From: Longimicrobiales bacterium
Lineage (GTDB): Bacteria > Gemmatimonadota > Gemmatimonadetes > Longimicrobiales > Gaopeijiaceae
DNA length: 64,000 nt
NCBI GenBank assembly: GCA_958295645.1
Contig: OY282361.1
Span: 1,578,501 to 1,642,500, forward strand
Reading direction: 5' to 3'
The number at the start of each line of letters is the position of its first letter. Positions within the stretch are counted from its first letter, which is position 1. Shown here in pieces: positions 45,559-49,472 of this stretch. The position numbers were made by a program, and so were the translations under genes. The notes below the pieces were generated by a model. That model ran no database searches, had not been told where the DNA came from, and saw nothing but the letters and a program-made list of their open reading frames with translations.

Positions 45559-46656
45559 ATGGGCAACCCACGACAGGCGCGTCAGGTGGACGTGGCACGC
45601 GAGCCGGGGCGGGCGGGTGGAAGGCGCTGGGTTCGGGCGGCGACGCTGGCTCTCGCGGCGGCATTGGACGTTCTCGGCGTCGGGCCGGGCGAGGCGCCGT
45701 GGTGGGAGAACGGGACGGCCGAACCAGGCCACGGGGACCTCCTCGCGGCCATGGCCGTTCAGGAAAGGCACAATCAGGATCTGCTGGGCCTTCCGGGCGT
45801 GGCAGGCACGGCGGTCGCCTTCGGGCCCAGCGGGCGCCCGGTCCTCAAGGTGTTCCTTGCGGCGCCCGGCGCGGCGGCGATTCCCGCGAGCTTCGACGGA
45901 TATGCCGTGATCACGGAGGTCACGGGGCCGTTTCGCTCGCTGGACGGCGGCGAGGCCGAATCCACCGATCCAAGACAGTCCTTCCCCCGTCCGGTGCCGA
46001 TCGGCGTGTCGGCGGGCCAAGTGGACGTGACCGCCGGCACCATCGGTGCGCGGGTGCGGTCCGGCGGCGAGGTCTTCGCTCTCAGCAACAACCACGTCTT
46101 CGCCAACAAGAACGCGGCAACTCGGGGCGACCCCATAGTCCAACCGGGCCGAATCGACGGCGGCGCCGCCCCCGCCGACGCCATCGGACGCCTCCACGAC
46201 TTCGAGCCGATCCGGTTCTGCCGACCGTTTCCGGCCTGCCCCGACAATCGCATCGACGCGGCCGTCGCGACCACGACGACGGCCCAGTTGGGCAACAGCA
46301 CTCCGCCCGAGGGATACGGCGTCCCACGAACCGAGACCGCGGTTCCCAGAATCGGCATGGAGGTCCAGAAGTACGGCCGCACTACGGGCCACACCACGGC
46401 GCGGATCACCGGCCTCAACGCCACCATCAACGTCGGCTTCCGCGACGGCACGGCGCGCTTCTCGGGGCAGATCGTCATCGGGCGAGGCGGCTTCTCCGGC
46501 CCGGGCGACTCGGGATCGCTCATCGTGACCGCAGGCCCCGCCGGACAAAGCCGGCGTCCGGTGGGCCTTCTGTTCGCCGGAAGCGACACGAGCACGCTCG
46601 CCAATCCCATCGGGGCCGTGCTGGATCGCTTCGGCGTGGCGATCGACGGCAACTGA
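45559..46656 (+). CDS. Trypsin-fold serine protease with N-terminal domain
   Basis: A 365-residue protein. A hydrophobic stretch (VRAATLALAAALDVLGV, 25-41) may be a signal or anchor. Residues 65-125 form a small domain (GLPGVAGTAVAFG to VITEVTGPF). The protease domain has H179 in LSNNHVF, D233 in NRIDAAVA and S318 in GPGDSGSL, in the order of the chymotrypsin triad. The spacing and the NNHVF/GDSGS pattern resemble Nal1-type and related bacterial S1-like peptidases. AAGGAGG lies 8 nt before ATG 45559. The following gene is a solo copy of its N-terminal domain. Confidence 0.82.
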   Translation: MGNPRQARQVDVAREPGRAGGRRWVRAATLALAAALDVLGVGPGEAPWWENGTAEPGHGDLLAAMAVQERHNQDLLGLPGVAGTAVAFGPSGRPVLKVFLAAPGAAAIPASFDGYAVITEVTGPFRSLDGGEAESTDPRQSFPRPVPIGVSAGQVDVTAGTIGARVRSGGEVFALSNNHVFANKNAATRGDPIVQPGRIDGGAAPADAIGRLHDFEPIRFCRPFPACPDNRIDAAVATTTTAQLGNSTPPEGYGVPRTETAVPRIGMEVQKYGRTTGHTTARITGLNATINVGFRDGTARFSGQIVIGRGGFSGPGDSGSLIVTAGPAGQSRRPVGLLFAGSDTSTLANPIGAVLDRFGVAIDGN

Positions 46657-46668
46657 GGCGGTCTGCCC

Positions 46669-46884
46669 GTGTCCGTGTCCGTCGAGCAGGCTCAGGCCCG
46701 TGTCACGCGGGCGGTGATCGGCCTACCCGGCGTGGCGGGCACTGCCGTCGGCCTGTCGGAAGGCAAGCCTTGCGTCACGATTCTGATTGAGAGCGACGAC
46801 CCGGCTCTGCGTGCGAGACTGCCGCGCTCCGAGGCCGGCTTCGCCGTGCGGGTCGAGGTGACCGGGCCATTCGGCTCGAGGTGA
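46669..46884 (+). CDS. Stand-alone copy of the protease N-terminal domain
   Basis: A 71-residue protein, GTG start 12 nt after the protease stop. It carries GLPGVAGTAVGLSEGKPCV and ends VRVEVTGPFGSR, matching residues about 77-125 of the protease just upstream, both in the first strand and in the VEVTGPF strand. It has no signal peptide. Stand-alone copies of protease pro-regions often act as inhibitors or folding helpers; that role is a guess here. Confidence 0.72.
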   Translation: MSVSVEQAQARVTRAVIGLPGVAGTAVGLSEGKPCVTILIESDDPALRARLPRSEAGFAVRVEVTGPFGSR

Positions 46885-47018: not shown

Positions 47019-49472
47019 ATGTCTGTTGCCCGTCGTCGAACCGCCAACTCGATCCTCTGCGTCGCCGGCGCTCTTGCCGCCTTCTCCGCCGCTGCCGAGG
47101 CGCAGACGATCTCGCGCCCCAGCCAGCAGGCGTTCGTTTCCAGTGCGCGCGCCGCCTTCGGAACGAGCATCGCCGTGGACGGCAGCCGGCTCTTCGTGGG
47201 AAGGCCGGGCGACGTGGCGCTGTTCCCCATGCCGCTGAACCGCCAGGGCGCGGTGCACGTCTTCGAGCTGGACGGCGATGGTGCGTGGGCGTGGGCGGGA
47301 AGGCTCGCGGAGGAGACCGCGGGACCGGGGTCCGGCTTCGGGAGCGCGCTGGCGGCCGCCGAAGGGGTGTTGGTGGTCGGGGCGCCGCAAGAGGGGCCGG
47401 GGGTGGCGTACGCCTACGATGGAGGCGGCGGAGAGGCCGGGTCGCAGGGGCCGGTCCAGCGCCTCGAGTGGAGCGGCGCGGAAGCTGGAGCGCGATTCGG
47501 AGCGTCCGTGGCCACGGACGGCGCCGTCGTGCTGGTCGGAGCGCCGGGGGCTGGCAGCGGGGCCGGCGCCGTGGTCTGGTTCGAGCGAACGGAAGGCGGC
47601 GAGTGGATGGAAGCGGGCGTCCTGGAGGGCGCTGGCGACGCCTTCGGCTCCTCCGTGGCCGTCGAGGGCGGCTTGGCGGTCGTGGGCGCGCCCGGCATGA
47701 GCCTCTTCGACCTGCAGAACTCCGGAGGGCCGCCGCCGCCGGGATCGGCCCGCCTCTTCCGCCGGGCGGACGGCAGTTGGACTCCGGCCGGAGACTTGGC
47801 GCCGCCGACTCCGGCTCCCGCGCTCATGGGGTCGGCGGTCGCGGTTTCGGGCGGCACGGCCTTCGTGGGCGCGCCGCTCGCGGAACAGTTCGCGGGAGCC
47901 GTCTACGCGTTCAGCGAGACAGCCGAAGAGTGGACGCTCGCCGGCACGATCAAGCCGTCCGCGCCCGAGCAGGGATCGATGTTCGGCCTGGCCTTGGCCG
48001 CCGCCGGGGCGGAAGTCGTGGTCGGCGCACCGCTGGCCAAGGGACAACTCGGCGAGGGCTACGCGTTCCGCCGCGACGATATGGGCGAATGGAGCCAGAC
48101 GGCGACCTTCGGACCCGGATCCCAGTTCTACTTCTACGGCATGGCGGTGGCCGTGGAGGAGGACTTTGCGTTTCTGGGCGCGCCCGGCGCCGCGTTCTTC
48201 GAGGGAGCCGGGTTCGTGTTCCGGCGCAGCGCCGACGGATGGGATCTCCAAGGCGAGATCGTCGACGAGGGCGAAGAGGCGGTGGCGTTGACCGGCGGCG
48301 AGCGCGAGTGCGAGGGCGGCGCCGTGGAGGGATTCGGCTGCAGCGAGGTGGACTTGGTGTCGTTCATGCCGGTTGGGGCGCTCGGGGGCGACCGGGGGAT
48401 GGTCGCCAACGACCTCTGGGGCTGGACCGATTCGCAGACCGGCCGCGAGTACGCGGTGATCGGGCGGGCCGACGCCACGGCCTTCGTCGACTTGGGCGAT
48501 CCGGCCAATCCCGTCTACCTGGGCGAGCTGCCCCATGCCGAGGCCGGGACCGCCAGCCTCTGGCGGGACGTGAAGGTCTACGCCGACCACGCCTTCATTG
48601 TGTCGGACAACGCGGGGGCGCACGGAATGCAGGTGTTCGACCTGACCCAGCTGCGCGACGTCGAGTCGCCACCCGTGGAGTTCGAGCAGACGTCGCACTA
48701 CGACGGCATCAACTCGGCGCACAACGTCGTGATCAACGAGGAAACCGGCTTCGCCTACGCCGTCGGCAGCTCGGGCGGAGGCGAGACCTGCGGCGGCGGA
48801 CTCCACATGATCGACGTGCGCGACCCGGCGAATCCGACTTTCGCGGGTTGCTTCGCGGACGAAGGCACGGGCCGAACGGGCACCGGCTACAGCCACGACG
48901 CGCAGTGCGTCGACTACCAAGGACCCGACGAAGAACACCGGGGGCGCGAGATATGCTTCGGCGCCAACGAAACCGCCTTGTCGGTCGCCGACGTGACCGA
49001 CAAGGAGAATCCCGTCTCCCTCGCCACGGCTTCCTATCCCAACATCGGCTACGTCCACCAGGGATGGCTCACCGACGACCAGAGCTACTTCTACGTGAAC
49101 GACGAGCTGGACGAACTCGGCGGCGAAGTCTCCAAGACCCGCACGCTGGTCTGGGACGTTCGCGACTTGGACGACCCCGTGCTGGTCAAGGAGCACTTCG
49201 GCGTTACCGCTTCGTCGGACCACAACCTGTACGTGCGCGGCGACTTCATGTACCAGGCCAACTACACGAGCGGCCTGCGCGTCCTGGACATCTCGAACCC
49301 GGAGGAGCCGGAGGAAGTCGGCTACTTCGACACGGTGTCCCAAGGCGAGGACGGACCGGGATTCGCCGGCGCCTGGAGCGTCTATCCCTACTTCGAGAGC
49401 GGCATCCTCATCGTGTCGAGCATGAAGGAAGGCCTCTTCGTGCTGCGGAAGAGCCCGCCGCGGGTGTCTTGA
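47019..49472 (+). CDS. Secreted choice-of-anchor B propeller protein
   Basis: An 817-residue exported protein (signal SILCVAGALAAFSAAAEAQ). The first half has FG-GAP-like repeats (ASVATDGAVVLVGAPGAGSG, SAVAVSGGTAFVGAPLAEQ, LALAAAGAEVVVGAPLAKG). The second half, from about residue 445, is the choice-of-anchor B domain (ANDLWGWTDSQTGREYAVIG, HNVVINEETGFAYAVGSSG, GYSHDAQCVDYQGPDEEH). Such proteins are surface-exposed in related phyla; function unknown. AGGAA precedes the ATG. Confidence 0.88.
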   Translation: MSVARRRTANSILCVAGALAAFSAAAEAQTISRPSQQAFVSSARAAFGTSIAVDGSRLFVGRPGDVALFPMPLNRQGAVHVFELDGDGAWAWAGRLAEETAGPGSGFGSALAAAEGVLVVGAPQEGPGVAYAYDGGGGEAGSQGPVQRLEWSGAEAGARFGASVATDGAVVLVGAPGAGSGAGAVVWFERTEGGEWMEAGVLEGAGDAFGSSVAVEGGLAVVGAPGMSLFDLQNSGGPPPPGSARLFRRADGSWTPAGDLAPPTPAPALMGSAVAVSGGTAFVGAPLAEQFAGAVYAFSETAEEWTLAGTIKPSAPEQGSMFGLALAAAGAEVVVGAPLAKGQLGEGYAFRRDDMGEWSQTATFGPGSQFYFYGMAVAVEEDFAFLGAPGAAFFEGAGFVFRRSADGWDLQGEIVDEGEEAVALTGGERECEGGAVEGFGCSEVDLVSFMPVGALGGDRGMVANDLWGWTDSQTGREYAVIGRADATAFVDLGDPANPVYLGELPHAEAGTASLWRDVKVYADHAFIVSDNAGAHGMQVFDLTQLRDVESPPVEFEQTSHYDGINSAHNVVINEETGFAYAVGSSGGGETCGGGLHMIDVRDPANPTFAGCFADEGTGRTGTGYSHDAQCVDYQGPDEEHRGREICFGANETALSVADVTDKENPVSLATASYPNIGYVHQGWLTDDQSYFYVNDELDELGGEVSKTRTLVWDVRDLDDPVLVKEHFGVTASSDHNLYVRGDFMYQANYTSGLRVLDISNPEEPEEVGYFDTVSQGEDGPGFAGAWSVYPYFESGILIVSSMKEGLFVLRKSPPRVS

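What the first reader, a model, noticed from the sequence alone, without database searches (positions are those of the whole stretch)
45559..46884. Protease followed by a free copy of its own N-terminal domain
The small protein at 46669 shares GLPGVAGTAV and VEVTGPF strands with residues 77-125 of the serine protease 12 nt upstream. A protease with a built-in domain plus a solo copy looks like a regulatory pair: the solo protein could inhibit the enzyme, help it fold, or compete for the same site. I know of no description of this pairing.
Basis: partly seen in the sequence, partly recalled or inferred. Interest (0 to 1): 0.6.

Follow-up and report, generated by a model that had tools for sequence, protein, structure and literature searches.

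The report
Protease paired with free N-domain copy
A bacterial protein-cutting enzyme is almost always encoded right beside a tiny protein that copies the enzyme's own front domain, most likely a dedicated guard that keeps the enzyme in check; the pairing is ancient and I found no description of it.

Summary
The 71-aa protein (46669-46884) is homologous to residues 68-125 of the serine protease 12 nt upstream (43% identity, E 6e-11). Only its 'VEVTGPF' is off by one residue (protease: TEVTGPF). The enzyme is a NAL1-like S1 protease with an intact triad, and its built-in domain is of the NAL1_N type.

All 67 assessable protease loci in the genome family carry the solo immediately downstream. 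The pair recurs across the phylum, once with gene order swapped, and in a Rubrobacter plasmid and IMG/VR contigs. Solo and built-in domain come from one ancient duplication. The solo is under purifying selection and matches no Pfam, NCBIfam, PHROG, PADLOC or PDB entry.

Location co-varies. Lipoprotein proteases have exported solos with a C-x4-C pair; membrane-anchored proteases, as here, have leaderless solos with one Cys.

Best explanation: a dedicated guard/inhibitor that mimics the enzyme's own domain, cytosolic in this lineage, analogous to Spi/SpeB and staphostatin. Binding and inhibition are inferred; the read-through structure model was inconclusive. Rivals are a folding or export partner and a mixed-oligomer subunit. 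Verdict: new variant of a known kind, interest 0.62.

The parts
45559..46656 (+). NAL1-like S1 serine protease, 365 aa
   Evidence: Pfam Nal1_C 27.4 bits over cut-off 26.1; PDB NAL1 E 1.4e-7
45628..45684 (+). N-terminal hydrophobic segment (residues 24-42) with basic N-flank and a central Asp; predicted signal anchor (N-in, C-out by the positive-inside rule)
   Evidence: hydropathy 1.99, same type in the family; topology is inference
45742..45942 (+). built-in NAL1_N-type domain (residues 62-128)
45988..46653 (+). catalytic domain (residues 144-365); His179 at 46093-46095, Asp233 at 46255-46257, Ser318 at 46510-46512
   Evidence: H179, D233 and S318 invariant in 30 proteases; Foldseek to NAL1 and streptogrisin
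46219..46239 (+). Cys221/Cys227 pair before the catalytic Asp, a likely disulfide; exactly two Cys from the N-domain onward in 60 of 60 family proteases
46655..46658 (+). GAGG ribosome-binding-site-like motif overlapping the protease stop codon
   Evidence: sequence
46669..46884 (+). solo domain protein, 71 aa, GTG start, no leader peptide; predicted alpha-beta-beta-alpha-beta fold
46771..46773 (+). Cys35, present in nearly all solos, replaced by Val in the protease's own domain
46867..46881 (+). C-terminal tail PFGSR, ending exactly five residues after the TG motif as in 46 of 60 family solos

Best explanation
The pair is a NAL1-like serine protease and its dedicated partner, an orthologous family of free-standing NAL1_N-type domains. 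The partner most likely binds the protease by mimicking the enzyme's own N-domain and holds it inactive. In the window's lineage the protease is membrane-anchored with its catalytic domain outside the cytoplasm, while the partner has no leader and stays in the cytosol. There it would neutralise copies that fold before export, as Spi does for SpeB and staphostatins for staphopains. In lineages where the protease is a lipoprotein, the partner is exported too and would act in the same compartment, as proposed for Bacteroides Bti. Shown: homology, adjacency, conservation, purifying selection, and the leader/Cys pattern. Inferred: topology, disulfides, binding, inhibition, and the role of the conserved C-terminal tail.
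For: Homology of solo and built-in domain. 67/67 assessable family loci have the solo directly downstream, with start codons mostly within -4 to +8 nt of the protease stop, which fits coupled and roughly stoichiometric synthesis. The pair spans the class, with order swapped in one family, and occurs in Actinomycetota and in IMG/VR contigs. N and S domains form two old groups, so this is not repeated recent duplication. dN/dS well below 1 in nearly all pairs. Leaderless solos have one Cys (65 of 69); solos with a signal have C-x4-C (32 of 34). Family proteases have exactly one Cys pair (60/60), which fits an exported enzyme. 46 of 60 family solos end exactly five residues past TG in Leu, Arg, Trp, Phe or Tyr, at the site aligned with the TG-x-F-x-A-L exit of the N-domain. 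Two solos are fused to a PEBP domain, a family with known protease-inhibitor members (own knowledge). Precedents read.
Against: No interaction or inhibition was shown. The read-through chain gave pTM 0.75, consistent with one of the two small domains not being placed. The NAL1_N-type domain is present in the NAL1 structures matched, so it may be a permanent module rather than a removable prodomain. Some second-copy proteases have no adjacent solo (L179, L184-L188, L190, L191). Some solo-type domains lie away from any protease (L155, L161-L165).
Confidence: 0.47

Rival explanations
1. The solo is a folding or export helper: it acts in trans like a prodomain or secretion chaperone, templating or delaying folding of the protease, without regulating mature activity.
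For: Tight gene coupling; a cytosolic solo with an exported protease in the window lineage; prodomains of alpha-lytic-type S1 proteases act as foldases (own knowledge), and the catalytic domain resembles streptogrisin and alpha-lytic protease.
Against: The protease keeps its own copy of the domain; some paralogous proteases do without a solo; no test of folding was possible.
Confidence: 0.22
2. The solo is a stoichiometric subunit: NAL1_N-type domains mediate oligomerisation, and the free copy caps or completes an oligomer of the protease.
For: NAL1 entries in the PDB hold multiples of three or six chains (chain counts); solo and N-domain share nearly all conserved core positions, so hetero-association is plausible.
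Against: In this lineage leader and Cys patterns place the two proteins in different compartments; the N-domain's role in bacterial oligomers is unknown.
Confidence: 0.14
3. The solo is a small ligand-, redox- or metal-sensing domain that happens to be kept in the operon and tunes the protease indirectly or serves another process.
For: A Cys that the N-domain lacks is nearly universal in solos; weak fold resemblance to MamM C-terminal metal-binding domains (best E 7e-3); the domain also occurs fused to PEBP and to a 6-bladed propeller.
Against: A few solos have no Cys (L158-L160); no significant structural match (none at E<=0.001); linkage with the protease persists even when the gene order changes.
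Confidence: 0.1
4. The solo is a neutral leftover of a domain duplication with no function tied to the protease.
For: It derives from a duplication of the same domain.
Against: Purifying selection, 67/67 retention, linkage across the class and beyond the phylum.
Confidence: 0.02

Closest known systems
NAL1 (NARROW LEAF 1) serine proteases, Pfam PF25608 NAL1_N + PF25819 Nal1_C
   Same: Catalytic domain over the Nal1_C cut-off; Foldseek match to rice NAL1 over about 360 columns, E 1e-14; N-domain related to NAL1_N-type domains.
   Different: Bacterial, exported, and accompanied by a separately encoded free copy of the N-domain; none of the NAL1 papers found here describes such a partner.
Stand-alone propeptide-like inhibitors (SUB1-ProM of Plasmodium, PMC6993865; subtilisin propeptide-like inhibitors)
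   Same: A small protein homologous to the N-terminal domain of a serine protease, encoded by a conserved gene next to it.
   Different: Target there is a subtilase; here an S1/NAL1-like protease with an unrelated N-domain. Inhibition is shown there, not here.
Spi (SpeB), staphostatins (staphopains), Bacteroides Bfi/Bti (C10 proteases), PMC3462683
   Same: Small protein gene contiguous with the protease gene, up- or downstream; leaderless and thought cytosolic for Spi/staphostatins, lipoprotein in BtiA/BtiB with lipoprotein proteases. The same two location patterns are seen here.
   Different: Cysteine proteases; staphostatins are not copies of the enzyme's domain.
Ssy5 (peptidase family S64, SPS sensor of yeast)
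   Same: Chymotrypsin-like protease whose N-terminal prodomain stays with the catalytic domain and keeps it inactive (PMC12958826); weak S64 signal in these proteases.
   Different: Prodomain in the same precursor, removed by ubiquitin-proteasome; no free copy known to me.

Membership tests
NAL1-like S1 serine protease (for the 365-aa protein) | Nal1_C domain above Pfam's gathering score | tested here: met
   27.4 bits, cut-off 26.1
NAL1-like S1 serine protease (for the 365-aa protein) | Ser/His/Asp triad in chymotrypsin order | tested here: met
   H179, D233, S318 invariant among 30 homologues; activity not tested
NAL1-like S1 serine protease (for the 365-aa protein) | NAL1_N domain above Pfam's gathering score | tested here: not met
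   No PF25608 hit for P0001; only remote profile similarity to NAL1_N-type domains (81.6%, E 1e-5). NAL1-like by catalytic domain and fold, not a strict NAL1
PF25608 NAL1_N (for the solo) | Match above gathering score | tested here: not met
   None of 44 solos hits it; profile-profile with NAL1_N-type domains 97.8%, E 9e-13, controls at most 2%. Related, but a separate unlisted family
Stand-alone propeptide-like protease inhibitor | Homologous to the N-terminal domain of the neighbouring protease | tested here: met
Stand-alone propeptide-like protease inhibitor | Conserved gene neighbourhood with the protease | tested here: met
   67/67 assessable loci
Stand-alone propeptide-like protease inhibitor | Built-in counterpart is a cleaved prodomain | not testable with these tools
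   No processing data; NAL1-type N-domain appears intact in solved NAL1 structures
Stand-alone propeptide-like protease inhibitor | Inhibits the protease | not testable with these tools
   needs an assay
Subtilisin propeptide (I9) type | I9-like fold or sequence | tested here: not met
   no Pfam hit; no subtilisin propeptide among the Foldseek matches listed and none at E<=0.001
Spi/staphostatin-type guard system | Leaderless small protein encoded with an exported protease | tested here: met
   leader and Cys patterns, (sequence-based only)
Spi/staphostatin-type guard system | Target is a papain-like cysteine protease | tested here: not met
   Target is an S1 serine protease
Anti-phage defence system (PADLOC) | Match to any PADLOC model | tested here: not met
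   none for protease or solo

The most novel reading that the evidence does not exclude
Free-standing NAL1_N-type domains form an undescribed, widespread family of dedicated protease guards. One domain duplication produced a built-in regulator and a trans-acting one that have co-existed since before the radiation of the phylum. The trans copy moved between cytosol and envelope as the protease's own anchoring changed, gaining or losing a disulfide on the way. The same logic operates for NAL1-like proteases in Actinomycetota and in contigs classed as viral.
Probability: 0.38. Interest if true: 0.76.

Novelty: new variant of a known kind. Interest (0 to 1): 0.62.

Why it matters
NAL1 controls leaf and grain traits in cereals, but what its N-terminal domain does is not settled in the papers I could read. 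A bacterial system where the same type of domain exists both built-in and free is a natural experiment that makes that role testable with small, expressible proteins. If the solo inhibits, it is a new genetically encoded inhibitor family for S1 proteases and gives an annotation to a conserved family of 70-120-aa proteins for which no model exists in Pfam, NCBIfam, PHROGs or PADLOC.

Tried and rejected
Anti-phage defence: rejected, no PADLOC match. Metallochaperone reading (weak CopZ hit, E 0.034): not supported, since a few solos lack Cys and Foldseek hits are non-significant. Stop-codon read-through (the window pair is in frame): rejected as a general mechanism, because the phase varies 0/1/2 among relatives and many starts overlap the protease stop. 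Recent duplication in each lineage: rejected by the tree (the row L096_S there is a mislabelled second N-domain of a tandem protease). Docking by structure prediction: the TGA=W read-through chain gave pTM 0.75, and no inter-domain error is reported, so inconclusive. Searches with a Rubrobacter-type and an f3-type solo found no further plasmid relatives. The 13 partners in alignment A6 were picked because they lie next to a protease, so their homology rests on the profile comparison with reversed and shuffled controls, and A5 versus A6 directly is weak (18%).

Full report
What is there. The window carries a 365-aa serine protease (45559-46656, +) and, 12 nt further, a 71-aa protein (46669-46884, +, GTG start with a GAGG over the protease stop). 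The small protein aligns with protease residues 68-125 at 43% identity, E 6e-11. GLPGVAGTAV is shared exactly, and the other block is EVTGPF. The genome holds no further copy.

The protease. It matches Pfam Nal1_C and rice NAL1 in the PDB. His179, Asp233 and Ser318 are invariant in 30 relatives. The built-in domain (about residues 62-128) scores nothing in Pfam by itself. Related bacterial proteases score over the cut-off for PF25608 NAL1_N at the same place (L195, E 3.5e-8). Profile-profile comparison links those domains to the solo family (97.8%, E 9e-13; reversed and column-shuffled controls at most 2%) and to the protease alignment (81.6%, E 1e-5). Foldseek of the model aligns about 360 columns to NAL1 chains, E 1e-14, TM 0.55-0.62. 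So the enzyme has NAL1-type architecture, remote in sequence.

Conserved pairing. In 121 genomes of the same family, 76 have a protease match. Of 70 retrieved loci, 67 have at least 300 nt downstream of the protease, and all 67 carry the solo directly downstream on the same strand. The three others run off their contigs. The first start codon of the solo usually lies between -4 and +8 nt of the protease stop. Across the phylum, solos and proteases occur in other families, and retrieved loci with both show the solo adjacent and downstream. In family f7 (L147, L148, L151, L160) it is adjacent and upstream instead, so linkage survives a change of order. These outside-family loci were chosen by solo hits and are biased. 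An unbiased look at proteases shows exceptions, mostly second copies in genomes that also have a paired one: L179, L184-L188, L190, L191. More divergent proteases also have solos (L181, L182).

Beyond the phylum. In Rubrobacter radiotolerans plasmid NZ_CP007516.1 a NAL1-like protease (WP_051590075.1) is followed 88 nt downstream by a 77-aa 'hypothetical protein' (WP_041339327.1) that is plainly the same domain (profile E 3e-16). In IMG/VR contigs, proteases of this fold are followed by 61-86-aa ORFs, many overlapping the protease stop, for example L202, L204, L206, L207, L209-L211, L213, L215, L216, L218-L220. As a set they match the solo profile (97.5%, E 6e-12). Whether these contigs are truly viral was not checked, and searching annotated phages with one of these proteases found nothing. 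Other NAL1_N-type proteases (L195-L201, L223) have no such neighbour.

The solo as a family. It has no match in Pfam, NCBIfam, PHROGs, PADLOC or the PDB by sequence. AlphaFold predicts alpha-beta-beta-alpha-beta with mean pLDDT 89; Foldseek finds nothing at E 0.001 or better. Protease domains and solos fall into two separate groups on the tree, so the duplication predates the lineages sampled (only 79 columns, weak inner support, one mislabelled row). dN/dS is well below 1 in nearly all close pairs; two pairs with very low dS give 0.6 and 0.9. Conserved core positions are shared with the built-in domain, but solos carry a Cys in G-K-P-C where the protease has Val.

Location. Outside the window's clade the proteases are mostly lipoproteins and so are the solos; in the window's clade the protease has an N-terminal hydrophobic anchor and the solo has no leader. 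Among 103 solos, 65 are leaderless with one Cys and 32 have a signal plus C-x4-5-C; six depart from this, and two of those six (L156, L157) do look like signal sequences just under the threshold. All 60 anchored proteases examined have exactly two Cys from the N-domain onward, a close pair next to the catalytic Asp. The simplest reading is that the protease is exported with one disulfide, exported solos have a disulfide, and leaderless solos are cytosolic. This is inference from sequence.

How it may work. The closest working precedents are Spi/SpeB and staphostatin/staphopain, small proteins thought to catch prematurely active protease in the cytosol, and Bacteroides lipoprotein proteases with lipoprotein inhibitors encoded up- or downstream (PMC3462683). 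SUB1-ProM is a free propeptide-like inhibitor encoded beside subtilases (PMC6993865), and Ssy5 keeps an inhibitory prodomain bound (PMC12958826). A solo that copies the protease's own domain fits this logic. Its C-terminus is nearly fixed: 46 of 60 family solos end exactly five residues after TG in Leu, Arg, Trp, Phe or Tyr, where the built-in domain continues TG-x-F-x-A-L into the linker. A product-like tail in the cleft would explain that, but this is a guess. Two solos are fused to a PEBP domain, a family with some protease inhibitors (own knowledge). The one structural test available, a read-through chain of both proteins, returned pTM 0.75 with a floppy linker; by a rough estimate this is what one unplaced small domain would give, and it decides nothing.

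Verdict. The pair is real, old, widespread and, as far as the literature held here shows, undescribed. The guard/inhibitor reading leads at about 0.47, ahead of a folding/export helper and an oligomer subunit. It is best classed as a new variant of a known kind: a co-encoded small partner built from the protease's own domain, here for the NAL1-like S1 family.

Noticed in passing
window 45628-45684 and the same place in L004-L032, L064-L089: The hydrophobic anchor of the family proteases carries a conserved acidic residue in its middle (for example LALAADLL, AAAIVLDALFF, LLLVVEALWL), unusual for a plain membrane anchor.
   Followed up: no
L157 3485-4270 (+), L156 1048-1836 (-): Solo domain in one open frame with a PEBP domain (PF01161, E 6e-45 and 4e-41); in L157 it directly follows the protease. 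An in-frame ATG at the junction means a separate start is possible.
   Followed up: partly
L161-L164: A second solo-type domain with C-x4-C sits at the C-terminus of 6-bladed propeller proteins (DUF5128/NHL in L163) in genus g3 genomes, away from any protease.
   Followed up: partly
L158, L159, L160: Solos with no cysteine at all, showing that the otherwise near-universal Cys is dispensable.
   Followed up: no
L096 1502-2237 and 3185-4949: Tandem protease genes, the first apparently broken in its catalytic part, with one solo after the second copy.
   Followed up: no
L224, L225: Rhizobium and Streptomyces plasmid proteins annotated 'DNA/RNA non-specific endonuclease' contain a NAL1-like protease stretch at their N-terminal half.
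   Followed up: no
window 47019-49472: Large secreted-looking protein with beta-propeller-like repeats directly downstream on the same strand; whether it shares a transcript with the pair is unknown, and no sigma-70-type promoter or terminator was found between 45000 and 47300.
   Followed up: no
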